Positions 388 through 64,000 of a stretch of DNA of 64,000 nt are shown in pieces. The translations under genes and the position numbers were made by a program. Position 1 is the stretch's first letter; each line of letters starts with the position of its first letter. The notes below the pieces were generated by a model. That model saw only the letters and a program-made list of their open reading frames with translations. It ran no database searches and had not been told where the DNA came from. Source of the stretch: Cymodocea nodosa (taxonomy: Eukaryota > Streptophyta > Magnoliopsida > Alismatales > Cymodoceaceae); assembly GCA_036874045.1 (NCBI GenBank), contig CM072341.1, positions 10,056,501 to 10,120,500 of the forward strand, read 5' to 3'.

Positions 388-1610
388 TTTATTTTGTAGG
401 AGGAAACAACATCAAAATGGATCTTGGACAGTGGAGCGTCAAGTCACATGACACAACAGAAAAGTCTACTACAAAATTTTACAAATACCATGAAAGGAAG
501 TGTAACATTTGGAAACAAAAGCAAAGATAAAATCATAGGTATGAGCAATGTTCAAATAATTCCAACTTGTGTTATTTCGAATGTACTATATGTAGAAAAC
601 CTAGGATTTAATTTGCTGAGTGTCATAAAACTAACTGAAAATGGATATTATATAGTGTTTGAAGATAATGTATGCAAAATTATTGATAAAAATACAAATG
701 AAATTAAGTTTATTGCTAAAAGAAAAGGTTCTGTATGTATTTTATCTTTACCTTCTGGTGTAGTTGATTTAAATTCATGTTTGCTAGCTGAAACTAGTGA
801 TGCATATCTGTGGCATAGAAGGATTGGGCATATAAATATGAAACTATTACATAAACTATCTAGAAAACATTTAGTGAGAGGTTTACCACAGATTAAATAC
901 TCAAAGTACTTTATGTGTGATGCATGTGACTTAAGTAAACTTCATAAAAACTCTTTTAAATCCAAAACTGATATTTCAAGCAAGAGAGTCTTAGAACTTA
1001 TACATATGGATCTATTTAGACCAACAAGAATCATGAGTCTTGGTGGTAAATGGTATGTATTTGTTTTAGTAGATGACATCTCTAGATACACTTGGGTATA
1101 TTTTCTAACATCTAAGACAGAAGTTTTTGAAAAGTTTAAAATATTTTGCAATTTTGTTCAAAATGAAAAAATGTCTCTATTCAAAAAATTAGGAGTGATC
1201 ATGGAACTGAATTTGATAATGATCAAATGGATAATTATTGTAGAGCATGGCATTGGTCACAAATTTTCTTTTTCAAGAGCACCGTCTCAAAATGGTAATG
1301 TTGAGAGAAAGAATAGATCACTTCAAGAAATGGCTAAAACTATGTCGAATGAACATAAGTTACCTCAAAATCTTTGGGCTGAAACAGTAAATACAGCTTG
1401 TTATGTTATTAACAGAAGTCATTTAAGACCTCGTGTTAATAAAACTCCTTTTGAAATTATGTTTAATAGGGTTCCAAAAATTTCCTATATGAAACCATTT
1501 GACTACAAGTGTTTTATTCTTAATACTAAGGATAGAAGGGATAAATTTCAGCCCAAAGCAGATGAAGAAATTTTTGTAGGTTACTCTATTAGAAGTAAAG
1601 CCTATAGAGT
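388..1610 (+). pseudogene. Cop-1 protease tail, GAG-pre-integrase and integrase, cut by Gyp-1
   Basis: The reading begins after the TAA at 385 with an EETTSKWILDSGASSHMT block; DSGA is the aspartic protease active site. A GAG-pre-integrase zinc-binding set follows (WHRRIGH then CDAC, HHCC type), then the integrase core. The first catalytic Asp is in HMDL. The second is gone: relative to the copy at 41309-41497 a base is lost near 1190 and two more near 1245, so about 18 codons between are read out of frame before the frame is restored at RAPSQNG. The third acidic residue sits in the NVERKN segment. The ORF then stops at Gyp-1, and its next residues resume at 18128. Integrase cannot be catalytic. 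Confidence 0.85.
1606..1610. repeat. Target site duplication of Gyp-1, left copy
   Basis: AGAGT immediately precedes the TG that opens the 5' LTR. It is repeated at 18123-18127 directly after the CA that closes the 3' LTR. Joining the flanks across one copy restores the copia reading seen in the uninterrupted copy near 41025. Confidence 0.93.
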
Positions 1611-3407
1611 TGTTTAGAATGAAAAAGTGCATATTATTAACGGTTAAATGATGGTTAATTGCATAATATTTAGCTTATCATATGAGAATTAAGCCATTAT
1701 GTTATAATTGCACTGTTATATGCTTTAATTGAAGAATCTGCTTAATTTTGGGGAATTAATGTTAATTTAGTACATTTATGAACTATCGGTAAATTGCAGG
1801 CTGTGAATTTCTTAAGTATCCGAAAATGCATCTGAGCATCGGATAGTTATACCTGTAACTCTCTGGAATGTTATTTTATGTTTAAACTGCTGCTGACACG
1901 TGTTGAGAGCTGGTAGATTTACTTACGTTATAACTTGTTAAGTTAGTATAACTGCATGCGTTGAGTTACATGAAAATACACTAAGGCAACGCGTTAGGTT
2001 AGCGTTATAAACTTAAGTTGTTATTTTTGCACGTGTTTTATAGTTAAATCAACGAAGGAAGTCCGTTGAGTTATCTGTAACTCCACAGACTATATATTTT
2101 CTAATATGCCACTGTAGCGGTTGTAGGAACAGATAGTTGGAAGGAAAAACCACGTTTGCACGTATCACGCAGGAATTCAATCGTGTAGGGAGAAAAAAAT
2201 CATCGTCGTTGATCTGAAGGAAGGAAATCCAACCGACCATTCAAGTAGAAGTAGTTACCACTGAAGAAATATAAAAGAAAAGAAGAAAAAAAAGAAAGTG
2301 TGTGATCGATGGACGACTAGTGTGTACAGAGGAGGAGCACCGAGCTTTCTACAGACAGTATCGGCGATTCTCCGAAGTATCACACCAACCATCATATCAC
2401 CACCATAATCACCAATCATCGGAGGTCTATAAGGATACTTGCCTGATGTCGAGTCGATTTCGAGCCAAACACAGTGCCTGACAACCACTGTGAGGAGTGA
2501 TCGCGTCACAGGAAGGGAAGACATTTTCACCAAGCGTCGACTCATATTTCAGGAGATCGTAAAGCTTTTAGCCTTGGCTTCGGGTTGATGCTTGTATGCT
2601 GAAGAGGAGATCATCTTGCAATTCTGGACTCGCGATTCTATAGGGAGAGGAGACAGAATTGTAAGTGGTTCAATTTTCAGTGGTGTAATCGCGTTGCAAG
2701 TAGTGTCAGAAGTATTTACTGTCAAGTGAAATTACTTTACATTTCACCTTTCGCCCATCACATCAAAACAAAAATACCAAAAACAATTTATCTTTGTTTG
2801 TATGTTGTATTTGAGTGTTGTATTGTTTGTGTTGTATCGTGATTAATGTTATCTGTATCAATTTTATGATTGTTTTATGTTAGTTTTAATTTTACAGTTT
2901 ACTGAAATTGGTTCGTACAAAACAACTTAAAGATTTTAATAGTTACTGTTTGAATCATCTGAATGTTAGTATTGCATAATGATAAATCCAATGTTAACTA
3001 GCATTAAAAAGCTTAATTGATGTTATTTACAATCTGTGGAATCGCCCAATGGTTGGCCGAATTCCTTTGTAATTAGTAATATTATAAAGAAGAGACAGGC
3101 TCGTGGAGTTAACTTAAGTCCACGAGGATAGTCCGTTGAGTGCTTATTGAATATAAATTTGAATTGTTCACAATCAAACATTTCTTAAATTCGTCAGCAA
3201 TTCCCTGTGGGATCGACCTGTACTTGCACATTGATACAATAGACACTGTGCACTTGCAGTTAAAGTACAAATTGGAATTAATATCTAAATTGTATTAAAG
3301 GTTGTTTGTTTACTTCTAAAAGAAAGAATAGGCATAAAGATAAATTAAGTAAAAATAGAAGTAACAAATCCAAGTCTTTCTAATGTAGTGCTGGGAAGAC
3401 GCGAACA
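1611..3407 (+). repeat. Gyp-1 5' LTR
   Basis: It starts TGTTTAGAATG and ends GCGAACA. It matches 16269-18122 throughout and is about 57 bp shorter because part of a palindrome array is missing near 3135 (compare 17783-17848). A TATA-like box lies at 2091, so U3 is about 480 bp and R-U5 about 1.3 kb. An antisense open frame at 2255-2545 appears in both LTRs of this element; I regard it as incidental. Confidence 0.93.
2091..2098 (+). promoter_or_regulatory. TATA-like box of the Gyp-1 LTR
   Basis: TATATATT directly follows the palindrome block at 2047-2090 and recurs in the 3' LTR at 16749-16757. The position in the first third of the LTR fits a U3 promoter. The start site was not determined. 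Confidence 0.5.
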
Positions 3408-3414
3408 AGTTTTA

Positions 3415-3432
3415 TAGCGCCGTTGCCGGGGA
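3415..3432 (+). other. Gyp-1 primer binding site, tRNA-Asp
   Basis: TAGCGCCGTTGCCGGGGA differs at one base from the complement of the 3' end of plant tRNA-Asp (TGGCGCCGTTGCCGGGGA). It begins 8 bases after the LTR end. A short run of GAATT-type repeats follows it (3431-3462). The same primer is used by Gyp-4 at 62351. Confidence 0.88.
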
Positions 3433-3531
3433 ATTGAATTGAATTGAACTGAATTGAATAGATATAAGCAACTGTTAGAGCTGTTTCATTTTAATAGTCA
3501 GAGTTGTGTGTTTTCTTCTATAATTGAGAAT

Positions 3532-4416
3532 ATGGTATATGCTTATGCTCAAAGATTTCTGAAACCTTTAATTAGCATATGTGAATTCTGCAATTCTGAA
3601 GGACATAACATTTCTGATTGTTTGAAATTGAGACATTTACAAATTGATAGATCCCATGAACAACAAATGAATTATCCTCAATATAATAGAGCCGAGTATG
3701 AGAATCCTATAGTTTACCCAACTGATGGTCAGTATAGAATGTGTAATATGATGAGAGACACTGAAGTTTGGGATAGCTATGACAGACTAGAGCATAGTAT
3801 AGAGCAAAATCTGGACAAACTGGAATACTTTGTGTGTCAACAACAAGAAGTCAACCAACTAAACTATAAGGAGGCATATTCAGAACCTAAACAGGATATA
3901 ATTTACGAAACTGAAAAAGCCATAAAGAAAATTGATCAAAAATTGAATGCAATGAAATTAAATGATCTGGAAACAAAATTAAAAGCATTAGATAAAAATG
4001 CAATGAAAATACAAGTTTTGCAATAGGACAATGAAAATTATAATGTTATAAACCTGCACAACTTGCAAAATATACAACAAACAGAAAACACAAATGTAAG
4101 AGAATTTAAAGAATGCACTTTAAAACTAAAAACAATTGAAGATCATAATCACGAAAATGATATACAAAAACATCATGAAAGTAACGAAAATCTGCAAGAT
4201 GTATGTGTAACATTAAGATCTGGAATTGATATACCACCAAGAACTCGAAATGAAAATGATATGAAGGTGGACAAGAGTAAAAATCAAAATGATAATGAAA
4301 ATGTAATAGCTGAAAATCTAGAAATCACTGAAAAACAATCTGAATCTACAATTGAAGCTAAAAATGATCAAACAAATCAACTGAAAGAAAAAGAGTCTTT
4401 GAAATCAAATCTTTAG
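3532..4416 (+). pseudogene. Gyp-1 zinc-knuckle (nucleocapsid-like) ORF before protease
   Basis: The ATG at 3532 (MVYAYAQ) is supported by Gyp-4, where the same start is kept at 62452 while the sequence upstream is out of frame. A CCHC knuckle, CEFCNSEGHNISDC, lies about 20 residues in. A Glu/Lys/Asn-rich stretch with coiled-coil character follows and leads into the protease frame through the [11 protein letters not shown] motif that joins gag to protease in plant gypsy elements. No capsid domain precedes the knuckle; that domain is found behind pol at 12020. Lesions are a TAG at 4024 (CAG in Gyp-4) and a frameshift near 4412. The product would be the nucleic-acid-binding part of gag. Confidence 0.8.
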
Positions 4417-4505: not shown

Positions 4506-7500
4506 TTGTTAGATCTATTACAGAATATGCCACCTTGTACTAAATTTCTGAAGGATTGGTGTACTAAGAAAAGAGAGCGAAAAGTTCTTAGAAAGGTCTT
4601 TTTAGCTGAGCAAAGTAGTTACCTATTTCTGCCACAAATTCCTAAAAAGTTATCTGATCTTGGAATCCCTGTTATATCATGCACCATAAGAAATACCATT
4701 CTAGAAAGAACCTTAATAGACTTAGGTGTAGGTATAAATGTTATGCCAAGTGATATATTTGCATCCTTAAGATTAGAAGACTTAACTCCTACTAGTACGG
4801 TTATTCAATTGGTTGATAGAAGTATAAAATACCCTAGAGGAAAAATAGAGGATGTCTTAATTAAAATCAAGAATTTTATATATCCTATTGATATTGTAAT
4901 TCTGGATTCCCAACAAATTAAGCATAAAAATAGTGATACATCTTTAATTTTGGGAAGTCCATTTTTAGCAACATCAAGGGCTATTATAAATTGTAAAACT
5001 GGAGTAATGAAATTAGCATATGGTAATGAGGATACTCAATTAAATATTTTTAAACCAGAAAGGTTTGAAGAGTTAGAAATGTCCTTACATACCATAGACT
5101 TTTTAGAGGATGAAGGAGATATGTTAGATGATGTGATTCAAGAAGAATTAAATAGGCAAATCAATTTTGAAACTTTAGAAGAAAGTGAAAGCATAAATAT
5201 AGAAGGAGATCAGGAAGAAATTAATTTAAAAAATGATGATGTTCAATTAGGAGCTCTAGCTTCTGATGGGCAGCATTTAGAATTAAAACATTTACCTCCT
5301 GAATTAACCTATATATTTCTAGAAGATAAACGGACCTGTCCAATCATTATTGCTTTAGATTTGAAAGAGGATCAAATAGCTAAATTAAAAGAGGTAATAA
5401 AAAGTTATAAAGAAGCAATAAGATGGACTATGACTGATATAAAAGGGTTAAGTTCAACTTTATGCTGTCACCACATATATTTAGAAGAGAATGCTAAACC
5501 TGTTAGAATTCCTAAGAGGAGATTAAATCCAAACCTTAAGGAAGTAGTTAGGAAGGAAATAGTTAAATGGTTAGATAATGATATAATATATCCGATTTCT
5601 AATAGCTCGTGGGTTAGTCCAATCCATGTAGTTCCCAAGAAATCAGGATTAATAGTTATTAGGAATGAAAGTCAAGACTTGATACCTACTAGAATTCAAT
5701 CAGGCTGGAGAGTATGTATAGACTATAGAAAGCTGAATGCTGTGACTAGGAAAGATCATTTTCCCTTACCTTTTATAGATCAAATGCTGGAAAGATTAGC
5801 AGGGCAAGAATATTTTTGTTTCCTAGATGGGTATTCAGGGTATAATCAAATTCCAGTAGCATTAGAGGATCAAGAGAAAACAACTTTCACTTGTCCTAAT
5901 GAAACTTATGCTTTTAAAAGAATGTCATTCGGATTATGCAATGCACCAACTACCTTTCAAAGGTGTGTGCAGGGCATATTTACTGGAATGACTGATGAAT
6001 TTTTAGAAATATTTATGGATGATTTTACTGTATATGGCAACTCATATGAAGTGTGTTTAAGCAATTTAGACCAAATATTAAAACGCTGTGTGGAAAAAAA
6101 TCTGGTTTTAAATTGGGAAAAATGTCACTACATGGTTAAACAAGGAATAGTCTTAGGGCATGTTGTTTCTAAAAAAGGGTTGGAAGTAGATAAAGCTAAA
6201 ATAAAAGTAATTTCTAATCTACCAGAACCTAAATCAGTAAAAGATATTAGATCATTTCTAGGACATGTTGGTTTTTATAGAAGATTTATTAAAGACTTTA
6301 GCAAGACAGCTAAACCTTTAACTAATCTATTAAAAGATGTTCCATTTAACTTTGATAAAAATTGCAAGGAAGCATTTTTTAGACTTAAGACTAGCTTAAT
6401 TTCAACTCCTATAATTCAAGCACCTAATTGGAACCATCCATTTGAATTAATGTGCGATGCTTCTGATTTTGCTGTAGGAGCAGTGTTAGGACAGAAAATA
6501 GAAAAATCTCCTAGAGTGATTCATTATGCACGCAAAACCTTAAATGATGCTCAAGTTAATTACACAACTACTGAAAAAGAATTATTAGCTGTTGTGTTTG
6601 CTTTAGAAAAGTTTAGATCATATTTGATTGGAGCTAAAGTAATAGTATACACAGATCATTCAGCTCTAAAACATCTAATAAAGAAAAAAGAAACTAAACC
6701 TAGATTGATCCGATGGATATTATTATTGCAGGAATTCGATCTAGAAATTAAAGATAAAAAAGGTTATGAGAATGTAGTAGCAGATTATTTATCAAGATTA
6801 CAAATAGAAAAATCAAATATTGAAATTAAGGATAATTTTCCTGATGAACAATTAATGACCATCAACACAATGCCTTGGTATACAGACATAGTTAATTACT
6901 TAGTTACTGGTTTAACACCTAAGGATTGGAATAGACAGGATAAAAAATTATTTTTCTCAATAGTAAAATATTACTATTGGGAAGACCCTTACATATTTAA
7001 GAAATGTCCTGATCTGGTTTTAAGGAGGTGTGTTCCAGAAACTGAATATTCGAGCATATTGTCTTTTTGTCATGACCAAGCTTGTGGAGGACATTTTTGT
7101 TCAGGGAAAACTACTGCAAAAATTCTGCAATGTGGGTTTTATTGGCCAACACTATTCAAAGATGCTCATAAATATTGCTTAAGTTGTTTAAGATGTCAAC
7201 AAATAGGAAGAATATCAAAGAGGAATATGATGCCTCTTAATCCTATTGTTGAGGTTGAAATCTTTGATGTGTGGGGAATAGATTTTATGGGTCCATTTCC
7301 TATATCTAATCAATTTAATTACATATTGTTGGGAGTGGATTATGTATCTAAATGGATAGAAGCTATTCCTACAAAAACTAACGATAACAAAGTGGTAATA
7401 CAATTTATAAGAACAAATATATTTGCCAGATTTGGAATACCTAAAGCTATTATCAGTGATAGAGGAACTCATTTCTGTAATAGAAGTTTTGAAGCCTTAA

Positions 7501-8177
7501 TGAAGAAATATGGAGTAAACCACAAAATTGCAACATCATATCATCCGCAAACAAGTGGACAAGTAGAAAGTGCAAACAAACAAATTAAATTAATCTCGGA
7601 AAAAGTAGTAAATCCTACTAGAACAGATTGGGCTAATAGATTGATTGATGCACTTTGGGCTTATAGAACTGCTTATAAAACAAGCTTAGGTATGTCACCT
7701 TTTAGGCTAGTATATGGAAAAAGTTGTCATTTACCTGCTGAAATAAAACATAAAGCTTATTGGGCATTAAAAACTCTGAACACTAATTTAAATCAAGCTG
7801 CTAAAAATAGGAAAATGCAACTAATTGAATTAGAAGAATTTAGAAATGAAGCTTATTCAAAGACTATAAGAGAAAAAGAGAAAATGAAATTCTGGCATGA
7901 TAGAAAAATTATTCCAAAAAACTTTGAAATAGGACAAGAAGTATATCTTTATATGGCTAGACTCCATAACCATCCAGGAAAATTAAGATCTAGATGGGCA
8001 GGACCTTACATAGTTCGAAATGTTTATCCTTATGGAGCTATTGAAATTGAAAATCCTAAAAATCAGAATATATTTAAATTAAATGGACAAAGACTTAAAA
8101 CTATTCTGAAAACACCAAAAAGCTCCTTTGGAATTATAGAAGAAATCAGAGTAGAGGACTACTCGAGTTTTACTTAG
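4506..8177 (+). CDS. pol: Gyp-1 pol: protease, reverse transcriptase, RNase H, integrase
   Basis: A continuous frame of 1223 codons. The protease motif DLGVGIN is near residue 72 (usually DLGASIN). RT carries FMDD near 503-506. RNase H has [10 protein letters not shown] near 650 and TDHSALKHL. Integrase has an HHCC finger (HDQACGGH to CLRC) and a DD35E core with Asp 926, Asp 985 and Glu 1021, with exactly 35 residues between the last two. There is no chromodomain, which excludes chromoviruses. The frame is open upstream of 4506 as well, so no true start is implied; translation presumably continues from the zinc-knuckle ORF. It is the best preserved gene here and may encode active enzymes, apart from the unusual protease motif. 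Confidence 0.92.
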
Positions 8178-8560: not shown

Positions 8561-8791
8561 AAAGAGAAAAACTATTCTTTGTAATATTTTTATTATTATA
8601 TTTGCTTGTACGGGGGAGTCCGTTGAGTTACGCTTAACTCAACGAGCTTACTCCGTTAAGTCTTGAGTTAGTCAACGAGCTTATTTCGTTGAGTTACCTG
8701 TAACACAACGGAGTACTGTAGCTAAGACCGTGGATAAAATAGTAATAGTTGGTTCGGGAAATGACCCGATTACATGCCTAAACTTAGTGCT

Positions 8792-9358: not shown

Positions 9359-9365
9359 AGCAGAA

Positions 9366-10876
9366 ATGATGGGGCCTTCGACTGAAGAAGAAATAAGAGA
9401 ATTTGCAGAACTGGTTCAAGTTGGAAAAAATCAAGGAGAATCAGAAGACTTGGCAGTGGCTAAAGCACACCTGGTGTTTGATGCACTGTACAAAAAGAGG
9501 GCTGCAGAAAAGTTGAAAGCCCAATATAAAATCAAGGTGGAACAGCATTACGCAGCTACTGCTAGAACTGCTGCCAAATCTGCTGCAAAAGAAGATGAAG
9601 CTGGTCCTTCGAGACCAGTAATTATAGGAAAAGTTAAACAGGAAGAGCCAGTACTTGTGGCTCGAAGGCCTGCAGAGCCTACTTTTGTAGATTTAATTTC
9701 AGAAGATGAAGAGGAAGAACAGGCACAACTAATTAGAAAAAAGAAAGGAAAAGAAAAAGTGCCTGAATTTGAGGAAATTAAATCTGAAGTACTAATTTTT
9801 ACAAGGCCTGTGGAGCAGATTTTTATCAACTTGCTATCCGAATCTAAGGAGGAGCAGGAGGAGCAAAGAAAAGAAAAAAATCAGGCTGAAATTACTTTGC
9901 AGCCTATACAAGAAGAAACAGAAATTAGGGTAGAAACTAAATTGCCCGTGAAGAGAATGTCCAAATGCAGCCTATACTAGAGGAAGAGCAAGAGCAAACC
10001 CCTCTGGAGCAACAAAGTCACCTTCCTGACCTGACTGAAACAACAATTTTGAATGAAGTACATTTTTGTAGTCAGGAAGCTTATATCAAATACCAAGAAA
10101 TAAGGGGTTACAAAATTATTTATAGTAGACCAGTAAATTGGGATGGAATGCAAGAAATCAAAGATCTATTTGAATTCCAAGGTCTACTGCAATTTATATC
10201 TCAAGATAGAGGGAATGCAATATATGAGAATTTAGTGTCCTGTTTCTATGCAAATTTAAGAGAAGGAGAAGGAGAATTAATTTCAAACATGGAGGAAGCT
10301 GATGTATAGATAACACCAGAGCTTCTCTACAACATATTTGGTTTAAAGAATGAAGGAACAAAAATTTTGGAGGATACAACTACAGTTGAATGGACTGAGC
10401 AGCAAATTAAGGATTATTTAGCTATCAATCCTAGTGTGCCATTATTAAACAGATTGAAGCGTTTAAATGGTAAAGCACACATGGTAGCTAACATTTTGAT
10501 TAAGAATGTCTATCAACGACAAGGCCATGACATAAAATTAAGTCAATTTGTCAAATGGGCCACATATGCAGTTGTAAATAAAATCCAAATAAATCGGTTT
10601 GCAGTTTTTGTCTCCAAGTTGAAAACAGTGAAGAAGAAATTATTTTATGGAGATTTGATTCCACTGCTGATGGTGGACTGTATCGATTTCACTAGATGGA
10701 CATCAAAAATGAAAAGATCAAGAACCATTTTAGTGAAAGAATACAGAAATTTTGTAGCTGCAGAACTAGTAGTACCTTCTGGAGGAATTGCAAGAGCAGT
10801 AGAGAGGATAAATCAATTAGAGCAGCAATTAGAAAAACTCCAGAAGGAAGTAGATGAACTTAGGCATAGAGATTAA
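9366..10876 (+). pseudogene. Gyp-1 accessory ORF, putative plant transposon protein domain (PF20167-like)
   Basis: The first part (9366-9980) is Ala/Glu/Lys-rich and acidic. A frameshift near 9965-9980 leads to a conserved globular region: IKDLFEFQGLLQF, SCFYANLREG, FGLKNEGTKI, then AHMVANILIKNVYQRQGH, NKIQINRFAVF and KKLFYGDLIPLLM, ending in a leucine-heptad coiled coil (RINQLEQQLEKLQKEVDEL). This pattern fits what I know of the Pfam family of putative plant transposon proteins, which is only a likely match. One TAG interrupts it at 10307. The copia ORF at 48296-50564 aligns over about 200 residues. The role is unknown. Confidence 0.6.
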
Positions 10877-12019
10877 ATTGTATTGTTCATCTACTTGTGT
10901 AAAATTATATGAAATTGTATGATGTACTTGTAATGTAATTGATTCATATTAATGAATATAATTTTTCAGATGCAATTTTCATATGTGTTTTGAATGTGAA
11001 ATGAATGGAAATTATTGAATATTATGTTATTGTGAAACTTTATGAATGAATATGTAACAGATTTACAATTTACTGAATGACAGGATAACTGCTTAAAAAT
11101 TTCTGCATGTTATAAGGTAAAATGTAAATTCTGCATAATATAAAATGACCTGCAATTTAAATCTTTATATAATGTTCAGATTTAAATGTATTTTAATCAA
11201 AATGAGGCATTAATGACAAAGATTTAACTTTATTACAGTTAGCAGAATGACAAAGAAAAATAAAAATAAAAAAAAAACAGAATAGAAAACTTACGAGAGT
11301 GAAACTTAGAAGTTGCTAAGTGTTAACTCAACGAAGTAAGTCCGTTGAGTTAACCGTAACTCCACGAGGTCAGTAATATAATATAAGGTCACTCCGTTGA
11401 GTTATCTGTAACTCAACGAAGTTAGTCCATGGAGTTAGCAACAGTAACCGACTGTGTTCTGTTGAGTAATCTGTAACTCAACGAGGTTAGTTCATGGATT
11501 AAGTAGAACGGTTATTCTTTTAACCACAAACGAAACTTCGTCGGTTTAGCGGTTACCAAAATTTGAAATTAGTAGTGGTACACGTACCCATTAAAACAAG
11601 AACCACGATGCATGTTGCAAGACACGTTCTTGCAACGAGATTTATTCACTTTAGGGATGCGCAGTATATATATGAAATAGAATGTTTTTTACGAGTTACC
11701 AGCACTTTTAAGAGAAAGGAGAAAGCGTTGGAGAAACTGGAAGGAGAAGCAGCTAATTCAACCTTCATCCGACAACAAATATTTATAGAATGGAAAGCTT
11801 CAGACTGGTATGTAATTAATCTTCTGTTATTTATTTATGAGCACATGGACTCATTCTCTAAGCACTAAACGATTAGTAAGAACACCTATCCAGGAATTTT
11901 CATTGCAAACACCTATCCAGGAATTTTCATTGCAGAGGGGTACTGAAAAATTTTCTAAACTAAACTTTAATGAAATTCTTTGGGGTGTAGCTAACCTTTC
12001 TTTAAAAGAGAATGTAGAG
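10877..12019 (+). other. Gyp-1 spacer before the displaced gag, with palindrome array and possible promoter
   Basis: It holds AT-rich sequence to 11280, then an AACTCAACG/CGTTGAGTT palindrome cluster (11320-11492), a TATATATA at 11668-11675 and a possible splice donor (CTG/GTATGT) near 11807. The gag frame is open from 11837, but its N-terminal extension contains a duplicated 24-base segment (11882-11929) and resembles no gag; I place the start at 12020. Confidence 0.55.
11320..11492 (+). repeat. AACTCAACG palindrome cluster in Gyp-1
   Basis: Three successive imperfect palindromes, each AACTCAACGA, a short centre, then TCCGTTGAGTTA or a variant, separated by about 50 bases. A diverged copy of the same cluster is in Gyp-2 at 32842-33012. 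Confidence 0.75.
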
Positions 12020-13203
12020 ATGGCTGCTCCAGTAGAAAAACCATTAGGAGAGATTCTATATCCTGAATTAATTGATGAACTTTCATGTATTCGACTGCCA
12101 AACTTTGAGGGAGATAGGTTTGAACTGAAATCTAATTATATTAGTCAATTTCCACATTTTCATGGATTAGAAAGAGAGGATGCCTATTATTTTCTTAGAG
12201 AATTTAACGAAGTTTGTCAAATGATGAGAATGCCGAACATAGGTATAGATGCTATTAAACTTAGATATATCCCTTTTGCTTTAAAAGATACAGCTAAGAG
12301 ATGGTTATATACTCTATTGCCTGATTCAATTTCTACATGGACTGAATTTTGCTCTGTTTTTCTGGAAAAATACTATCCAACACATCAAATGATTAAAAAG
12401 AAGAAAGAAATATTAATGTGTAGCCAAAAACAGGGTGAATCATTCTGGAAATATTTTGAAAGATTTAAAGATTTACTAACTCAATGTCCACATCATGCAA
12501 TGAGTAAAGCACAATTAATAGGCATAATTTATGAAGGCATAGATGTTTCAATGAAATCTTTATTAGAATCTACTTGTCAAAATGGATTTTTAAAATTATG
12601 TAGTGAAGAAGCATGGGCATATTTAGAAAATTTTGCAAAAAGAACTACACAGTGGGAAAATTCGGCTGAAGCTATTGTAGATAAAAGATTATTGCCAAGA
12701 GGAATGCATGAAATAGATTCCAATACTATGCTTGAGGTGAAATTAAATGAATTAACAAAGAAAATAGAAGAGTTATCATTAAATCAAAAGCTAGCAGAAA
12801 AGAATACAAACATAAATGACTTAGATATTATTTATGCTAGAAACCAGAGAGATAACTTGGGAAATTATTAGAATCCTAATTGGAGAAATCACCTGAATTT
12901 ATCTTGGAGAAACAACAATTTCTAGGGAGGAGAAAATATAAATGAGAAGAACATAAGTTATGAAGTATTAATTGAACAAGGAGCTAGAATAGAGAAATTA
13001 GAAAAGATAATCCAACAAGTAAATAATCGTCTAGAATTTATATTTGGAAATGTTGTAAATCAAAATCAGAATAGAAATATACCACTTAGAAGGAACCAAT
13101 GGAAGTTAGACCTACTGGAGGATTGCCAATACAAGCTATACCTAATCCTATCAATAGAATGGTTAATGAAATTGATACCTCTTCTGGGAGGGCAGCTGAA
13201 TGA
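12020..13203 (+). pseudogene. gag: Gyp-1 gag capsid-type ORF, located behind pol and without zinc knuckle
   Basis: The ATG at 12020 (MAAPVEKPLGEILYPEL) corresponds to the usual MADQ start of plant gypsy gag. The retrotransposon gag domain follows: FELKSNYISQFPHFHG, EDAYYFLREFNEVCQMM, LKDTAKRWLYTLLP, WTEFCSVFLEKYYP, GESFWKYFERFKDLL. Relatives place a CCHC knuckle between the coiled-coil segment (LTKKIEELSLNQ) and the NPNWRNHPN motif; here that interval has no cysteines. Lesions are a TAG at 12869 (TAT in Gyp-2), a second stop near 12925 and a frameshift near 13110; the ancestral end is SSGRAAE plus TGA at 13201. It lies 3.8 kb behind integrase, in sense orientation. Confidence 0.85.
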
Positions 13204-13228
13204 AGCAGCATATCTGAAGCAACTATCT

Positions 13229-13389
13229 GTATGTATATATGTTTTTATTTTTATTTTAAGTTAATAGTATCGTAAAGTTCATTTTTAACTCAACGAACTT
13301 AGTCCGTTGAGTTATACCTTAACTCCACGAGGGTGTGCAATAGTTATGTTAATTTTTTTCTTTGCTAAATTTTTGTTTTTATTTTACAG
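13229..13389 (+). other. Intron-like leader of the Gyp-1 F-box gene
   Basis: A GT at 13229 in the context CTATCT/GTATGT and an AG at 13389 behind a T-rich tract (TTTTTATTTTACAG) delimit 161 bases, ending 9 bases before the F-box ATG. Gyp-2 keeps the equivalent sites at 34721 and 34876 (156 bases). A 27-bp palindrome of the AACTCAACG type lies inside. Splicing is inferred from the motifs only. Confidence 0.4.
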
Positions 13390-13398: not shown

Positions 13399-14538
13399 AT
13401 GGAATTAATGCAATTACCGTTGGATGCACAAAGGGAAATACTAAGTAACTTCTCAACTAAAGATCTGTGCTGGATGTGTTGTGTATCAAAGAAAATTAAA
13501 GACTGTATTGAAGAAAAATATTTTCAGGGACTACAAGCTGCAAAAATGACTAAGATTAGAGATGGATTCATATGGAGGTCATTTAATCGTAGTTCAAATA
13601 CCCATGAATATCTAGCTATGGAAGAAACTACTGGAATTCCAACTAATGCATTAGAAGGAATGAGTCATATTATGGGGATAGATGAAGGATTAATCATATA
13701 CAAGACAAGACCAAGGTATGCAAGTTTATCATTACCTGAGATTTTGATAAGAAATCCTATAACAGGAGAAGAATGTAATATAGTAAGACCTAATATATCT
13801 GAAGCACCAACTGAAAATTGTGGGTCAGCTTTAATATTTTCTAATAAAAATTCTACAATTCCTGAAAATTTATATTATTGGAGACCTACAGGAAATTGGG
13901 ATGAAGATTTACGCTTAAGTGTGTATAATTTTCTAAACAGATCTTGGAATGAAAACATTATAATATATCTAGGACAGAAATCATTAATTAACCAAACACA
14001 TGTCATACTTGATGGTTATATTTATTTAGTCACGGAGATATCAATAGCAAATAAATCTGATTTATACATAGTGAGCATAGACAGTTATGATGATTATATA
14101 GAAATTTTACCTGTCCCGAGTGAAATAGCTAAACCACCATCTGAAAAATTTAATAAAATTCAAATAGGAATGTGGTATAATGAAAAAGATGATCCTACTT
14201 TATGTCTGATAAGATGGTGGGATGAACTGATGAAATTTCAAATATGGATTATGGAAGACATGAATGAATGGAAGTGGGAAGAGGAGTATATTGAAATAGA
14301 TGTAGAAATAAAAACTGCTACATTACCTTGGAACCAAAAAGGATCCCTTTTTGCATTACATATCATTAATGGTGATACACTCGTATTTGGAATTTATAAT
14401 ATATTGCATGTTTACAAATTAAAAAGGACCAAGAACTGCATTAAAACAGAATTAATAGCAAGAAGAACTATGCCTAAAAAGTTTGCTTGGACTGATACAT
14501 TTATTCCATTTGTTTCTACTTTTCAATCATGTTCTTAA
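13399..14538 (+). CDS. F-box protein gene carried by Gyp-1
   Basis: 379 codons with no lesion, ATG at 13399. The F-box spans about residues 4-40: LPLDAQREILSNFSTKDLCW followed by MCCVSKKIKDCI, with the usual Leu-Pro, Ile-Leu, Leu and Val-Ser-Lys positions. The C-terminal half looks like an F-box-associated (FBA) beta-propeller: RNPITGEE, GYIYLV, LYIVSIDSYDDYIEILPVP, KIQIGMWYN, FQIWIMEDMNEWKWEEEY and HVYKLKRTKN. F-box proteins recruit substrates to SCF ubiquitin ligases through SKP1; that role here is inferred. It lies between gag and the 3' LTR in sense, where plant elements may carry an envelope-like gene. No signal peptide or membrane segment is seen. A second copy is at 34895. Confidence 0.82.
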   Translation: MELMQLPLDAQREILSNFSTKDLCWMCCVSKKIKDCIEEKYFQGLQAAKMTKIRDGFIWRSFNRSSNTHEYLAMEETTGIPTNALEGMSHIMGIDEGLIIYKTRPRYASLSLPEILIRNPITGEECNIVRPNISEAPTENCGSALIFSNKNSTIPENLYYWRPTGNWDEDLRLSVYNFLNRSWNENIIIYLGQKSLINQTHVILDGYIYLVTEISIANKSDLYIVSIDSYDDYIEILPVPSEIAKPPSEKFNKIQIGMWYNEKDDPTLCLIRWWDELMKFQIWIMEDMNEWKWEEEYIEIDVEIKTATLPWNQKGSLFALHIINGDTLVFGIYNILHVYKLKRTKNCIKTELIARRTMPKKFAWTDTFIPFVSTFQSCS

Positions 14539-16268: not shown

Positions 16269-18122
16269 TATTTAGAATGAAAAAGTGCATATTATTAACG
16301 GTTAAATGATGGTTAATTGCATAATATTTAGCTTATCATATGAGAATTAAGCCATTATGTTATAATTGCACTGTTATATGCTTTAATTGAAGAATCTGCT
16401 TAATTTTAGGGAATTAATGTTAATTTAGCACATTTATGAACTGTCGGTAAATTGCAGGCTATGAAATTCTTAAGTATTCGAAAATGCATCTGAGCATCGG
16501 ATAGTTATACCTGTAACTCTCCGGAATGTTATTTTATGTTTAAACTGCTGTTGACACGTGTTGAGAGCTGGTAGATTTACTTACGTTATAACTCGTTAAG
16601 TTAGTATAACTGCACGCGTTGAGTTACTTGAAAATACACTAAGGCAACACGTTAGGTTAGCGTTATAAACTTAAGTTGTTATTTTTACACGTGTTTTATA
16701 GTTAAATCAACGAAGGAAGTCCGTTGAGTTATCTGTAACTCCACGGACTATATATTTTCTAATATGCCACTGTAGTAGTTGTAGGAACAGATAGTTGGAA
16801 GGAAAAACCACGTTTGCACGTATCACGCAAGAATTCAATCGCGTAGAGAGAAAGAAATCATCGCCGTTGATCTGAAGGAAGGAAATCCAACTGACCATTC
16901 AAGCAGAAGCAATTACCACTGAAGAAATATAAAAGAAAAGAAGAAAAAAAAGAAAGTGTGTGATCGATGGACGGCTAGTGTATACAGAGGAGGAGCACCA
17001 AGCTTTCTATAGACAATATCGGCGATTCTCCGAAGTATCACACCAACCATCGTATCACCACCATAATCACCAATCATCGGAGGTCTGTGAGGATACTTGC
17101 CTGATGTCGGGTCGATTCCGAGCCAAACATAGTGCTTGACAACCACTGTGAGGAGTGATCGCATCGCGGGAAGGGAAGACATTTTCACCAAGCGCCGACT
17201 CATATTTCAGGAGATCGTAAAGCTTTTAGCCTTGGCTTCGGGTTGATGCCTGTATGTTGAAGAGGAGATCATCTTGCAATTCTGGACTCACGATTCTATA
17301 AGGAGAGGAGACAGAATTGTAAGTGGTTCAATTTTCAGTGGTGTAATCGCATTGCAAGTAGTGTCGGAAGTATTTACTATCAAGTGAAATTACTTTACAT
17401 TTCACCTTTCGCCCATCACATCAAAACAAAAATACCAAAAACTATTTATCTTTGTTTGTATGTTGTATTTGAGTGTTGTATTGTTTGTGTTGTATCGTTA
17501 CTAATGTTATCTGTATCAATTTTATGATTGTTTTATGTTAGTTTTAATTTTACAGTTTACTAAAATTGGTTCGTACAAAACAACTTAAAGATTTTAATGG
17601 TTACTATTTGAATCATCTGAACGTTAGTATTGCATAATGATAAATCCAATGTTAACTAGCATTAAAAAGTTTAATTGATGTTATTTACAATCTGTGGAAT
17701 CGCCCAATGGTTGGTCGAATTCCTCTGTAATTAGCAGTATTATAAAGAAGAGACAGGCTTGTGGAGTTAACTTAAGTCCAAGAGGATAGTCAGTTGAGTT
17801 ATCAATAACTCAACGAACTTAGTTCGTTGAGTTAACTGTAACTCAACAGAGTGCTTATTGAATATAAATTTGAATTGTTCACAATCAAACATTTCTTAAA
17901 TTCGTCAGTAATTCCCTATGGGATCGACCTGTGCTTGCACACTGATACAATAGACACTGTGCACTTGCAGTTAAAGTACAAATTGGAATTAATATCTAAA
18001 TTGTATTAAAGGTTGTTTGTTTACTTCTAAAAGAAAGAATAGGCATAAAGATAAATTAACTAAGTAAAAATAGAAGTAACAAATCCAAGTCTTTCTAATG
18101 TAGTGTTGGGAAGACGTGAACA
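16269..18122 (+). repeat. Gyp-1 3' LTR
   Basis: It starts TATTTAGAATG (the expected TG has become TA) right after the polypurine tract, and ends GTGAACA before the AGAGT duplication. The length is 1854 bp. It contains a palindrome block at 17783-17848 that is mostly missing from the 5' LTR. Confidence 0.93.
17807..17833 (+). repeat. Perfect 27-bp palindrome in the Gyp-1 3' LTR
   Basis: AACTCAACGAACT, a single T, then AGTTCGTTGAGTT: the 13-base arms are exact reverse complements. It is the cleanest member of a motif family seen more than a dozen times in the window. Confidence 0.9.
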
Positions 18123-18127
18123 AGAGT
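18123..18127. repeat. Target site duplication of Gyp-1, right copy
   Basis: AGAGT, the partner of 1606-1610. Cop-1 coding sequence resumes directly after it. Confidence 0.93.
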
Positions 18128-34876: not shown

Positions 34877-34894
34877 AATCAACAAATAGAATTG

Positions 34895-36019
34895 ATGCAA
34901 TTACCATTGGATGCACTAAGGGAAGTACGAAGTAACTTGTTAACTAAAGATCTGTGCAGGCTGTGTTGTGTATCAAAGAAAATTAAAGACTATATTAAAG
35001 AAAAATATTTTCAAGGACTACAAGCTGCAAAAATGACTAAGATTAGAGATGGATTCATATGGAGGTTATTTAATCGTAGTTCAATTAACCATGAATATCT
35101 ACCTATGGAAGAAACTACTGGAATTCCACCCAATACATTAGAAGGAATAGATCATATTATGGGGATGGATGAAGGATTAATCATATATAGGACGAGACAA
35201 AGGCATGCAAGTCTACCTAATATTTTGATAAGAAATCCTATAACAAGGGAAGAATGGAATATAGGAAGACCTAATAGATATGAAGTACCAATTGTAAATT
35301 GTGGGTCGACTTTAATATTTTCTGATAAAAATTCTACAATTCCTGAAAAATTATATTTTTGGAGACCTACAGGAAATTGGGGTGAAGATTTACGCTTAAG
35401 TGTGTATAATTTTCTGAATAGATCTTGGACTGAAAATATTATGATATATCTAGGACAGAAATCATTAATTAACAGCATGCATGTCATACTTGATGGATAT
35501 ATATATCTAGTCACAGATATATCAATAGCATTTGGATCTTATTTATACATAGTGAGCATAGATAGTTATGATGATTTTATAGAAATATTACCTATACCGA
35601 GTGATATAGCTAAACCACCATCTACAAAATTTGATAAAATTCAAATAGGGATGTGGTATAATGAATATGATGATCCTACTTTATGTCTGATAAGATGGTG
35701 GGATGAATTGATGAAATTTCAAATATGGATTATGAAAGACATAAATGAATGGAAGTGGGAAGAGGAATATATTGAAATAGATGTAGAAATAGAAACTGCT
35801 ACATTACCTTGGAACCGAAAAGGATCCATTTCTGCATTTCATATCATTAGTGGTAATACACTTGTATTTGGAATTTATAATATATTACACGTTTACAAAT
35901 TAAGAAGTAACAAGAACTGCATTAAAACAGAATTAATAGCAAGAAGAATTATGGCTAAAAAGTTTGCTTGGACTGACACATTTATTCCATTTGTTTCTAC
36001 TTTTCAATCATGTTCTTAA
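34895..36019 (+). CDS. F-box protein gene carried by Gyp-2
   Basis: 374 codons, no stop or frameshift. The upstream Met of Gyp-1 is ATA here, so I choose the ATG at 34895 (MQLPLDALREVRSN), which gives the same F-box start; the frame is open further upstream but that part is the intron-like leader. The F-box reads LPLDALREVRSNLLTKDLCR then LCCVSKKIKDYI. The FBA-like part keeps YIYLVTDIS, LYIVSIDSYDDFIEILPIP, KIQIGMWYNE and FQIWIMKDINEWKWEEEY. About 80-85% of residues match Gyp-1 by eye, with a two-residue deletion near 107. The flanking gag is broken in three places while this gene stays open. Presumed SCF adaptor by family; the target is unknown. Confidence 0.82.
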   Translation: MQLPLDALREVRSNLLTKDLCRLCCVSKKIKDYIKEKYFQGLQAAKMTKIRDGFIWRLFNRSSINHEYLPMEETTGIPPNTLEGIDHIMGMDEGLIIYRTRQRHASLPNILIRNPITREEWNIGRPNRYEVPIVNCGSTLIFSDKNSTIPEKLYFWRPTGNWGEDLRLSVYNFLNRSWTENIMIYLGQKSLINSMHVILDGYIYLVTDISIAFGSYLYIVSIDSYDDFIEILPIPSDIAKPPSTKFDKIQIGMWYNEYDDPTLCLIRWWDELMKFQIWIMKDINEWKWEEEYIEIDVEIETATLPWNRKGSISAFHIISGNTLVFGIYNILHVYKLRSNKNCIKTELIARRIMAKKFAWTDTFIPFVSTFQSCS

Positions 36020-55068: not shown

Positions 55069-56367
55069 TCAACCAGAAGTGGAAGGTCTATCAGTAAGTG
55101 TAGTGTCCTGCACAGAATGAATAGTAGTGCTACACGGGTTGGGAATGGTGGAACTAGGCAAAGAACCTCTATCACGTCCTCCAGATGAGGAAGCAATCTG
55201 ATCCAGATGAGCTTCTATGTTCTTAATAGCATTCCCATGCTCTGCTAAGATGGGTGTAGCTTGGCTACTTATCTTTAGCAAAGATGCAATACCCTTCTCA
55301 AGATCAACAAGGTGCTTACCAATAGAAGTATGCGACTCATGGAATGATGGAAAAGGTGCTCTAGAAGTGCTCAGAAATGATGGCGGTAGGTTCTCTCTAG
55401 GCAACCCAAGTTATCACCAAGAAAAATTAGGATGGTTCCTCCATCCCAAGTGTTAATACTGTGATGGAGGGTGGGGTCTATAACTTGCCCCAATGGCATT
55501 AACGTCCTCAGTCATATAAGAATCAATGCTAGTGATAGTAGGGCAAGTCTCATTCACGTGTCCCAATGCCCCACACCCTACACACTTAATACTAGGGCTC
55601 TCAATAGGCCCCCTAATCATGAAATCCTCCATCTTCTTCAGCATCGCTATCACACGTGCCTCAACCCTAGTCATCGGATCAGCACGATGAACTCCTCTAG
55701 TTGGGAGGGATCTATCAAAACTCCTAACTGAACTCTCCATTTGCATAGTGCGCTCAGCTAAATCCTGATAAAACGTCCATGCTTGTTCTTCATTATACCT
55801 CATAAATCCCATAGGACACATGGACTCTAGCATTGTCTTAGTAGGATAGTTCAACCCCTCGTATAAGATTTGACACTACCTTGAACGAGGGATCCCGTGG
55901 TTTGGGCACCGAGCCAGCATTCTATTAAATCTCTCAAAGTACTTCCAGAATGGCACTTCTGATCCTTGAACAATGTTCTTTATGGCATTTTGCGCTTGGA
56001 TTGTGCGATGCAATGGATAGAATTTCTTAATAAATAGGGCATAGAATTCTGTCCAAGTCCTAATTGCTAGTAAAGTGAACATCCAACACTTGGCATCATC
56101 TTATAATGCCAAGGGAATGAACCTCAACTTGATGGCATCAGCAGGCAAATCAAGGATGTTAATCATGTTGCATACTACATTAAAGTCATGTAAAAACAAG
56201 TATACATCCTCATTCTCAATCCCATGAAACTTAGGGAGTTGGCTAATATAACTAGAATGAAGCTCAAATTTCTTCCCTACACACGGTGGAAGAATAAAAC
56301 AAGATGGCTGATCTAACTAAATAGGATAACAGATTTCTTGTAAAGGTCGCAACTACTGGTCAGCCAT
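55069..56367 (-). pseudogene. gag: Gyp-3 gag with zinc knuckle, behind integrase
   Basis: ATG at 56367 (MADQ, then TAG). Capsid region: FELHSSYISQLPKFHG, EDVYLFLHDFNVVCNMI, WTEFYALFIKKFYPLHR, FWKYFERFNRMLARCPNHG, then MLESMCPMGFMRYNEEQAW. The CCHC knuckle CVGCGALGHVNETC is intact (about 55590), followed by the HLGWRNHPNFSWW motif and a Ser/Pro-rich tail to TGA at 55069. Stops interrupt it in at least five places (after MADQ, YPI, LAL, RSR, SQY). This is the complete gag layout that Gyp-1 lacks, so it shows where the knuckle should sit. The frame may extend upstream to 56466. Confidence 0.82.
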
Positions 56368-56674
56368 ACTATCAAAGCTAGCACAAGACAAGTCAACTCC
56401 CTCAAGGGTTTGCTCTACTCTCGCGAGCCTATTTGAACTATCTCTAACCCACAAAGAACTATGCATAAACTGTTAGGTAATAACAATGAAATAGAAGAGA
56501 AACGTACCTAACACCAGCTATGTAACTTAAGCACTCGAGAAACCTATCCACAAATTGTTGATTAGAAATGCACAAATAAACAACTACAACTAAAAACACA
56601 TAGTAGAAAAGAAACAAGAAAAATACAACTACATATACAGAATGAGCTAAAATATTTAAACATTCAAATCTAGC
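56368..56674 (-). other. Short spacer between Gyp-3 integrase and gag
   Basis: About 300 bases, partly an open N-terminal extension of gag (RDSSNRLARVEQTLEGV). No retroviral cis-signals seen. Confidence 0.6.
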
Positions 56675-57850
56675 TCAAGTGTAAGAAGGCTCATCTAAAG
56701 TAATATCTCCACCACCATAAGGCTTCTTATCAGATAAGAATAATTTCAACCAATGACCATTAACCTTAAAAATGTCCCCCCTTTTCATATTTTCTATATC
56801 TACTGCACCATGGGGATAAACTTTCTTAACTAAATAAGGTCCAGTCCATCGAGATCTAAACTTCCCAGGAAAAATGTGCAATCTTGAATTATATAATAGA
56901 ACCTTTTGGCCTATCACAAATTCTCTCCTCAAGATATGCTTATCATGAAATATTTTGGCCTTTTCTTTTGCAATTCTAGAATTCTCATATGCCTCATGAT
57001 GGATTTCTTCCAATTCAAATAAGTCTAGTCTCCTCTTCTTCTTTGCTGCCTCTAAATCCAAATTAAATCTTTTTATTGCCCACATAGCTCTATGTTCTAA
57101 TTCTATGGGCAAATGGCAGGCTTTACCATATATAGTCCTGAAAGGAGACATCCCAAGGACAGACTTATGGGTAGTTCTGTAAGCCCACAAAGCTTCATCT
57201 AATCTATCTACCCAGTCTTTCCTAGATGGTCCAACAGTCTTTTCTAAGATACTTTTGATTTGTCTATTAGCATTCTCAACTTGTCCATTTGTTTGTGGGT
57301 GATAAGGAGTAGCCATTTTATGTGTAACCCCATATTTTCTCATTAATATCTCAAAGCTCTTGTTACAAAAATGGGTTCCTCTATCACTCACTATAGCCCT
57401 AGGAACACCAAATCGAGCAAAGATGTTGGACTTAAGAAAGGATATCACTACTTTTGAATCACATGTGCAGGTAGGAATAGCTTCAATCCACTTGGAGACA
57501 TAATCTATGGCTAAAAGGATATATAGATAACCCCTAGAATTTGGAAATAGTCCCATAAAATCTATCCCCCACACATCAAGCAACTCAACTTCTATAATAA
57601 GCGAAAGCAGCATCATACTTTTTCTAGTAAGTCTACCCACTTTCTGGCATTCACCACACTGCTTAACAAATGAATGTGCATCCCTGAATAATGTAGGCCA
57701 ATAGAAACCACACTGAAGTACCTTTGCAGTAGTTTTCCCTGAACCTAAATGACCACCTGTAGCTTGGTCATGGCAAAAGGAAAGCACACTACTGACCTCA
57801 GTGTCAAGAATGCATCTCCTTAACACACAATCAGGCCCAAACTTGAACAA
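56675..57850 (-). pseudogene. Gyp-3 integrase
   Basis: An open stretch of 391 codons. HHCC finger: HDQATGGHLGSGKTTAKVL then CGECQKVGR. Core: [12 protein letters not shown] (Asp), [10 protein letters not shown] (Asp), NGQVENANRQIK (Glu). The C-terminal domain reads RSRWTGPYLVKKVYPHGA and ends LDEPSYT; no chromodomain. It is open in itself, but the upstream part of pol is interrupted (stop at 57905), so I call it part of a pseudogene. Similar in length and ending to Gyp-1 integrase. Confidence 0.88.
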
Positions 57851-60360: not shown

Positions 60361-60381
60361 ATAGTGGAATGTTAATCCTCA

Positions 60382-62343: not shown

Positions 62344-62350
62344 AGTTTTC

Positions 62351-62368
62351 TAGCACCGTTGCCGAGGA
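62351..62368 (+). other. Gyp-4 primer binding site, tRNA-Asp
   Basis: TAGCACCGTTGCCGAGGA, three changes from the tRNA-Asp complement, all of the transition type; 7 bases after the LTR. Confidence 0.82.
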
Positions 62369-62451
62369 ATTTGAGTAGTTAAGCAATTGTAAGTGCTGTT
62401 TCATTTTAATAGTAAGAGGGGTATTGTGTGTTTTCTTCTATAATTGAGAAT

Positions 62452-63432: not shown

Positions 63433-64000
63433 ATAATGCCACCTTGTGCTAAATTTCTGAAGGATTGGTGTACTAAGAAAAGAGTGCGAAAAATTTTAAA
63501 GAAAGTCTTTTTAGCTGAGCAAAGTAGTTCCCTATTTCTGCCACAAATTCCTAAAAAGTTATCTGATCTTGAAATTCCTGTTATATCATGCACCATAGAA
63601 AATACCATTCTAGAAAGAACCTTAATAGGCTTAGGTGCAAGTATAAATGTTATGCCAAGTGATATATTTGCATCCTTAGGATTAGAAGGCTTAATCCCTA
63701 CTAGGACTATTATTCAATTAGCAGATATAAGTATAAGATACCTTAGAGGAAAAATAGAGGATGTCTTAATTAAAATCAAAAACTTCATATATCCTATTGA
63801 TATTGTAATTTTGGATTCCCAACAAATTAAGCATAAAAATAGTGATGCATCTTTAATTTTGGGAAGACCATTTTTAGCAACATCAGGGGCTGTTATAAAT
63901 TATAAAAGTGGAGTAATGAAGTTATCATATGGCAATGAGGATACTCAATTAAACATTTTCAAACCAGGAAAGTTTGAGGAGTTAGAAAGTCCTTACATAC
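63433..64000 (+). pseudogene. Gyp-4 protease, beginning of pol
   Basis: Continues the same frame: [32 protein letters not shown], then the active-site region as IGLGASINVMPS, where the catalytic Asp is replaced by Gly, so protease is inactive. LILGRPFLATSGAVI follows. A frameshift near 63985. RT would lie outside the window. Confidence 0.85.

What the first reader, a model, noticed from the sequence alone, without database searches (positions are those of the whole stretch)
13399..14538. A host-type F-box gene rides inside a gypsy retrotransposon
The sequence shows an open frame of 379 codons with an N-terminal F-box and an F-box-associated-like C-terminal half, in sense, between gag and the 3' LTR of a complete element with target duplication. 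F-box proteins are SCF ubiquitin-ligase adaptors; known capture events by plant LTR elements are mostly one-off transductions. Here the gene sits in a fixed slot. An element-encoded adaptor could redirect host proteolysis, for example against silencing factors, as one plant-virus suppressor is known to do. That last step is inference.
Basis: partly seen in the sequence, partly recalled or inferred. Interest (0 to 1): 0.93.

Follow-up and report, generated by a model that had tools for sequence, protein, structure and literature searches.

The report
Spliced F-box gene inside plant retrotransposon
A common jumping element in this plant genome carries its own F-box gene (a class that normally marks which proteins the cell destroys), and genomic traces show RNA spliced to skip the element's displaced capsid gene and reach it, so the element may be able to steer its host's protein disposal.

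Summary
Window 13399-14538 is an intact 379-codon ORF with an F-box above Pfam's cut-off (36.4 bits against 20.5); the F-box-associated half stays below cut-off. It lies in sense in a complete 16.5-kb Ty3/gypsy element (TG..CA LTRs, TSD AGAGT, empty site in the window). The slot is fixed: 26 of 26 copies chosen by neighbouring non-coding DNA carry the gene; at least 217 genomic places match it. Two things go beyond the finding. First, 203 places carry an exact GT-AG intron loss joining an upstream exon to the F-box and 13 a shorter one (control 0), best read as retrocopied spliced RNA. Second, the long intron contains the capsid gene: gag is split, its zinc-knuckle part leading the element (8 of 8 sampled 5' ends), its capsid part behind pol. 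Function is inferred, most likely SCF substrate adaptor. Selection tests show no clear purifying constraint, the F-box is no better conserved than neighbouring non-coding DNA, the donor gene was not found and the structure model failed. New variant of a known kind.

The parts
1606..1610 (.). target site duplication AGAGT (left); right copy at 18123-18127
   Evidence: unfilled copia copy at 40536-42640 (-)
1611..3407 (+). 5' LTR (TG..CA)
3417..3432 (+). primer-binding-site-like sequence GCGCCGTTGCCGGGGA; match to tRNA-Asp and use in Athila-type elements is recalled
   Evidence: a loose pattern of it was found in 3 of 8 sampled 5' ends
3454..4026 (+). NC part of gag (CCHC zinc knuckle, below Pfam cut-off, read from the letters; no capsid domain), first gene after the LTR
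   Evidence: 150 scored genome hits; 8 of 8 sampled 5' ends
4506..8177 (+). pol: RT, RNase H, integrase
9366..10876 (+). accessory ORFs A-C without a Pfam match above cut-off; this copy lacks about 240 bp near 9951 that L029, L036 and L039 have
11322..11502 (+). hairpin repeats (GTTGAGTTA / TAACTCAAC) shared with the LTR; TATATATA follows at 11665; possible internal promoter (inference)
11790..11807 (+). end of upstream exon; its ATG comes into frame with the F-box ORF after the long splice (adds MESFRLNRQ)
11808..13389 (+). long alternative intron GTATGT...TTTTACAG containing the capsid gene; exactly absent from 5 of 40 sampled copies, junction found at 203 genomic places
11837..12871 (+). 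CA (capsid) part of gag, PF03732 E 9.7e-21; its frame is broken in this copy after 12871
13229..13389 (+). short alternative intron with the same acceptor; absent from 1 of 40 sampled copies (L042), junction found at 13 genomic places
13399..14538 (+). F-box gene, 379 codons (F-box at residues 4-41)
16269..18122 (+). 3' LTR
34886..36019 (+). second F-box copy in the window (83% aa identity), same slot; its capsid gene (broken) at 33354-34353, its LTR at 37942-40022
60382..64000 (+). start of a third related element: LTR, then the NC ORF at 62381-62944 and pol, no capsid match between; cut by the window end
55603..60364 (-). distant gypsy element (57% pol identity): pol 60364-56711, then a gag frame broken by stops, with capsid-like (42% identity) and CCHC sequence, at 56412-55603, downstream of pol

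Best explanation
This is a high-copy plant Ty3/gypsy family that carries an F-box gene as a standing accessory gene. SHOWN: the gene has a fixed place between the capsid part of gag and the 3' LTR; many genomic copies lack, base for base, a GT-AG interval just upstream of its ATG, best read as reverse-transcribed spliced RNA; the long interval contains the capsid gene, so unspliced RNA keeps capsid and spliced RNA puts the F-box behind a short exon whose ATG is in frame. INFERRED: splicing is the switch between capsid and F-box production; the protein binds SKP1/ASK and works as an SCF substrate adaptor; its target is a host protein that limits the element, for example a silencing factor, or a protein of the element itself.
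For: F-box above cut-off in the window copy and 10 of 10 others given. Fixed slot: 26 of 26 copies chosen by neighbouring non-coding DNA (26 of the 40 scored hits); of 20 chosen by F-box score, 20 run into the 3' LTR and 17 have the capsid part directly upstream. 108 and 109 scored places with no overlap by my comparison, the two window copies included; capped lists, so lower bounds. 32 of 108 F-box hits have one of the 150 scored NC hits 4-16 kb upstream on the same strand, 0 of 108 downstream. Intron loss: L029, L036, L048, L050, L056 (long) and L042 (short) among 40 sampled copies; junctions at 203 and 13 places with up to one mismatch, reversed-pattern control 0; the long donor GTATGT is intact in 19 of the 22 copies, the other three being two spliced and one deleted. 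One origin for the five long losses is rejected (p-AU 5.9e-5; 5 changes, at least 3 forced by supported branches; the group was named after a first tree was seen). 40 of 108 and 19 of 109 hits have no stop (my count). Between the window pair the F-box has 1 gap event in 1131 bases, in frame, against 4 in 655 and 5 in 762 in non-coding DNA downstream. No stop among 43 differences nearly fixed between two groups of copies where 3.4 would be expected (P about 0.03 by my arithmetic, one of several tests, copies largely picked by protein score).
Against: No clear purifying selection. In the unbiased sample stops occur at the neutral rate (16 against 14.5 expected among singletons, 11 against 9.6 among shared changes) and N/S is not significantly low (0.81, p 0.26; 0.69, p 0.10). 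Inner branches (0.71, p 0.21) are no lower than end branches (0.67, p 0.0004); 4 stop changes on inner branches against 6.3 expected, p 0.53. Differences fixed between groups give 0.71 (p 0.35), 0.61 (p 0.26) and 2.73 (10 N, 1 S; p 0.48) at thresholds of 80, 90 and 100%. Between the window pair the F-box differs at 8.75% of sites, no less than the capsid part (7.4%) or non-coding DNA downstream (7.7-8.4%); dN/dS is 0.64 for the F-box and 0.41 for the capsid part. Only 4 of 26 unbiased copies are intact, the query included. The short donor is mutated in several copies. No RNA or protein data. The AlphaFold model failed (pLDDT 33.8).
Confidence: 0.6

Rival explanations
1. Passenger gene: a host F-box gene was captured once by a founder and rides along without helping the element; the splicing is a left-over of the captured gene or of the junction.
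For: No significant purifying selection on inner branches, shared changes or fixed differences; the F-box is no better conserved than neighbouring non-coding DNA and has a higher dN/dS than the capsid part; 22 of 26 unbiased copies are broken.
Against: Stop-free members exist in both sets of places, and the window pair keeps the frame at 17% protein difference; no stop among 43 nearly fixed differences (biased sample); the long donor is intact in 19 of 22 copies looked at. Broken copies are expected for any element gene after insertion.
Confidence: 0.28
2. The F-box protein acts on the element's own products (capsid, NC-Pol) to tune their ratio or limit copy number, not on host factors.
For: Capsid and F-box look like alternative products of one intron, which fits a feedback between the two.
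Against: No interaction data; nothing in the sequence names a target.
Confidence: 0.12
3. The intron-lacking copies are DNA deletions, or one spliced founder that multiplied, so splicing is not a normal part of expression.
For: L039 lacks a similar stretch by a deletion with GACA microhomology, so deletions of the region do occur; recombination during reverse transcription can spread one loss over the tree.
Against: Base-exact GT-AG ends at 203 places and a second donor with the same acceptor at 13; one clade rejected; junctions abut F-box hits of both lists.
Confidence: 0.08

Closest known systems
Additional ORFs (aORF/eORF) of plant LTR elements: Athila, Ogre, Retand, Grande, SIRE
   Different: no F-box is named in the parts read of that review, and the word count in the main text is 0 in PMC6317226, PMC11963269 and PMC11728184 (passages seen); domains named there include plant mobile domain, Transposase_28, ATHILA ORF-1. 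Supplements were not readable
EVADE and BARE1 spliced short GAG, Ogre intron
   Same: plant LTR elements with alternative splicing that changes gag output (PMC12786077 passages; PMC3735527 abstract)
   Different: there splicing makes a gag-only RNA from gag-pol (EVADE, BARE1); here it removes the capsid gene and reaches an accessory gene
Polerovirus P0
   Same: F-box-like protein of a parasite of plants; reported SKP1 binding and silencing suppression via AGO1 (start of the abstract of PMC6593998 as shown in the listing)
   Different: RNA virus protein; no relation tested; activity here untested
Athila-type Ty3/gypsy elements
   Same: large element, long LTRs, PBS of the tRNA-Asp kind (recalled), accessory ORFs after pol
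   Different: capsid part of gag lies after pol; NC part is the first gene and goes with pol
Spumaretroviruses (foamy viruses)
   Same: Pol made without a Gag-Pol fusion (recalled)
   Different: their gag is whole and 5' of pol (recalled)

Membership tests
F-box protein | F-box domain above Pfam gathering score | tested here: met
   36.4 bits against 20.5; second window copy 27.2; 10 of 10 further copies
F-box protein with FBA domain | FBA_1 or FBA_3 above gathering score | tested here: not met
   16.4 against 21.1 and 9.4 against 20.7
SCF substrate adaptor | binds SKP1/ASK and a substrate | not testable with these tools
   no usable structure model; PDB search by sequence gave only hits of E 1.1 and 2.1
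Ty3/gypsy LTR retrotransposon | LTRs, TSD, PBS, RT-RH-INT order | tested here: met
Canonical plant Ty3/gypsy | capsid part of gag upstream of protease-RT-INT | tested here: not met
   no capsid match in 8 of 8 sampled 5' ends (8 of 150 scored) nor in the 5' parts of window elements 1 and 3; present downstream of pol
Athila clade | RT/INT phylogeny within Athila | not tested
   no reference sequences used; assignment rests on PBS and build, recalled
Tat clade | second (archaeal-type) RNase H | tested here: inconclusive
   Pfam shows one RNase H region in pol; a divergent one could be missed
Accessory ORF (aORF) rather than one-off transduction | present in all or most copies of a family | tested here: met
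   26 of 26 in the unbiased sample
Intron removed by the spliceosome | exact GT-AG loss, more than one event | tested here: met
   from DNA only, no RNA seen

The most novel reading that the evidence does not exclude
A plant retrotransposon lineage has taken its gag apart: NC stays at the 5' end and travels with pol, capsid has become a separate gene 3' of pol inside a retained intron, and splicing out that intron turns capsid RNA into messenger for an element-encoded SCF adaptor that degrades a host defence protein, an accessory-gene strategy like that of complex retroviruses.
Probability: 0.3. Interest if true: 0.96.

Novelty: new variant of a known kind. Interest (0 to 1): 0.86.

Why it matters
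It would be the first plant LTR family known to me with an F-box gene as a regular part, and it comes with genomic fossils of splicing, so expression can be tested at once with RNA reads across two named junctions. It offers a testable route by which a transposon could act on host proteolysis. Independently of the F-box, the split and re-ordered gag challenges the rule that capsid, NC and pol are made as one 5' unit. A large survey states that elements with domains in unexpected order were removed as likely wrong predictions (PMC6317226, passages seen), so such elements may have been filtered out before.

Tried and rejected
Homologues: (5.8 billion proteins) gave no match at E 0.01. Host donor: PF00646 in the own genome was asked and never answered; PF07734 was unanswered, and it rang in 0 of 14 control genomes and not here, so it shows nothing; PF03732 was unanswered. 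Structure: two-sequence AlphaFold run useless (pLDDT 33.8); no fold search was made on it. PDB by sequence: nothing of weight.

Considered and dropped: that every copy lacking the capsid part is spliced (L039 has a microhomology join; L028 and L031 have deletions elsewhere with A-run or microhomology joins). That strong purifying selection is shown: the first result (singletons 98 N, 42 S, 7 stop; shared 26 N, 20 S, 2 stop; 0.62 and 0.35 of neutral) came from copies picked by F-box score; the unbiased sample gave 0.81 and 0.69. The automatic label left six copies unknown; reading their junctions showed L050 long-spliced, L042 short-spliced, the other four unspliced with changed letters. Count of unspliced copies genome-wide: asked, never answered. 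An earlier count gave 13230 for the short donor; the base count puts the intron at 13229-13389. Paper searches: held no paper; others (21 papers; 20 of 253 listed; 16; 14) showed no title or abstract start about an F-box gene in an LTR element, and of these I opened PMC7264820, PMC11728184, PMC11963269 and PMC1142308 only; on capsid after pol, held none and one search listed 4, none opened. These cover open-licence papers only.

Full report
WHAT IS THERE. Window 13399-14538 is a 379-codon ORF. Pfam gives F-box PF00646 at 36.4 bits (cut-off 20.5), residues 4-41; FBA_1 reaches 16.4 of 21.1 needed. The ORF lies in an element with LTRs 1611-3407 and 16269-18122, which differ at 70 of 1797 aligned bases, 64 of them transitions. 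Assuming 1.3e-8 changes per site and year (recalled), that is about 1.5 million years. The element starts TG, ends CA, and is flanked by AGAGT; the same copia sequence without it lies at 40536-42640 on the minus strand.

A FIXED SLOT. The own genome (374.6 Mb, 28 contigs, unnamed) was searched with the protein: 108 matches scored out of 7003 first-look candidates, 91-100% identical. The second window copy (34886-36019) as query gave 109 out of 7018, 86-92% identical apart from itself. By my comparison the two lists share no place; both are capped, so 217 is a lower bound. Twenty of the 108 (ranks 2-21) were fetched with flanks: 20 of 20 are followed by 3' LTR sequence, 17 of 20 have the capsid part of gag directly upstream. 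Because these had been picked by F-box score, I drew a second sample by the non-coding DNA downstream (40 scored of 3174): 26 of the 40 were examined, namely the first 25, the window copy among them, and the 30th, which I already held. 26 of 26 carry the F-box; 4 of 26 are intact.

SPLICING, READ FROM THE GENOME. L029 and L036 lack exactly 11808-13389, which begins GTATGT and ends TTTTACAG. In the second sample L048, L050 and L056 show the same join, and L042 lacks only 13229-13389, using another donor and the same acceptor. The long junction occurs at 203 places genome-wide and the short one at 13, with up to one mismatch and 0 in the reversed-pattern control. Some of the listed junctions abut F-box hits of the first list (for example C5:13457547) and some of the second (for example C12:4258679). 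On a tree of 42 copies the five long-spliced ones need 5 changes, at least 3 forced by supported branches, and one clade is rejected (p-AU 5.9e-5). The group was named after a first tree had been seen, and recombination could still have spread one loss. L029 keeps the window's 8953-11806 stretch upstream, apart from an extra piece that the window copy lacks, so this copy came from an RNA that reached well beyond the F-box exon. The upstream exon's ATG (11790) comes into frame with the F-box ORF after the long splice. The long donor is GTATGT in 19 of the 22 copies; the other three are two spliced copies and one with a deletion. The short donor is mutated in several of the same copies. In the second window copy the first ATG of the ORF is ATA, but the exon ATG remains. 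This is strong evidence from DNA that the acceptor is used in RNA; it is not evidence that protein is made.

A SPLIT GAG. The capsid domain (PF03732, E 9.7e-21) is at 11837-12871, after pol (4506-8177) and after accessory ORFs. The first gene after the LTR is an NC ORF with a CCHC knuckle (3454-4026), with no capsid gene before it. Eight of the 150 scored NC hits were fetched with 700 bases upstream: 8 of 8 have LTR sequence upstream of the NC ORF and no capsid match; in 7 of 8 the LTR match ends within 100 bases of the ORF, in L076 it is interrupted; a loose PBS pattern was found in 3 of 8. The third window element shows the same start. 32 of 108 F-box hits have one of the 150 NC hits 4-16 kb upstream on the same strand (median 10130) and 0 of 108 downstream; both lists are capped. 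Two stop-free NC hits lie in open frames of 1077 and 1028 codons, so NC and pol can form one frame. A distant element on the minus strand (57% pol identity) has a gag frame, broken by stops, with capsid-like sequence (42% identity over 274 residues) and a CCHC motif, about 300 bp after pol; its 5' end is outside the window. So capsid after pol is seen in two lineages, and in the F-box family NC has been separated from it.

IS THE F-BOX MAINTAINED? The evidence is mixed and I weigh it as weak. Against: between the window pair the F-box differs at 8.75% of sites, the capsid part at 7.4%, non-coding DNA downstream at 7.7-8.4%, the LTR at 14.4%. Stops in the unbiased sample match the neutral rate (16 against 14.5; 11 against 9.6). 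Inner branches give 0.71 of neutral N/S and end branches 0.67, so the sources look no more constrained than dead copies. Differences between two groups of 41 and 13 copies are 31 N and 12 S at the 80% threshold (0.71, p 0.35), 20 N and 9 S at 90% (0.61, p 0.26), 10 N and 1 S at 100% (2.73, p 0.48). The window pair gives dN/dS 0.64 (NG86) or 0.50 (YN00) for the F-box against 0.41 or 0.39 for the capsid part. For: 1 gap event in 1131 bases of F-box, in frame, against 4 in 655 and 5 in 762 downstream; no stop among the 43 differences at 80% (3.4 expected), in copies largely picked by protein score; stop-free members in both lists (40 of 108 and 19 of 109 by my count). The neutral expectation comes from singletons in flanking DNA of 17 copies and may be off, since end branches fall below 1 (p 0.0004).

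HOW IT PROBABLY WORKS. Unspliced RNA carries the capsid gene in the retained intron; spliced RNA brings the F-box behind a short exon. How ribosomes reach either is not known: either an internal promoter, hinted at by hairpin repeats shared with the LTR and a TATATATA at 11665, or a splice from the 5' leader. The F-box protein then most likely acts as SCF adaptor (from the domain, not tested). A target in silencing is a guess by analogy with P0, of which I saw an abstract start in a listing.

COMPARISON. The review of additional ORFs (PMC7264820, parts 1 and 2 of 3 read) and the survey PMC6317226 (passages) name other domains, not F-box. PMC12786077 (passages) names Ogre and EVADE as the exceptions with introns, and BARE1 as spliced. 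None describes capsid after pol in what I saw; PMC6317226 says elements with unexpected domain order were removed. My searches cover open-licence papers only, so a description elsewhere cannot be excluded.

Noticed in passing
window 20299-21637, 23914-27689, 46467-52677: The copia element into which element 1 inserted appears to carry 3' accessory ORFs 37-39% identical to the gypsy family's ORFs B and C, a non-coding block about 73% like gypsy 15312-16115, and an LTR with a 105-bp stretch 82-86% like the gypsy LTR. That these pieces belong to one copia element is inferred from their order in two places. It suggests exchange of accessory modules between copia and gypsy elements.
   Followed up: partly
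window 1960, 8612-8717, 11322-11502, 13285-13332, 16702-16745, 17761-17855, 26673, 45734 and others: A hairpin motif (GTTGAGTTA or TAACTCAAC) occurs 47 times in the window (no chance expectation computed), in LTRs of more than one family and ahead of the accessory ORFs, the capsid gene and the F-box. Possible shared regulatory element.
   Followed up: partly
window 55603-60364 (minus strand): A distant gypsy element with a gag frame (broken by stops) lying after pol; its 5' end is cut off by the third element at 60382.
   Followed up: partly
window 9951 against L029, L036, L039: The window element lacks about 240 bp within its accessory ORF A/B that these three copies have.
   Followed up: no
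L028, L031, L039: These copies have internal deletions with microhomology or A-run joins, so deleted derivatives of the family exist besides the spliced ones.
   Followed up: no
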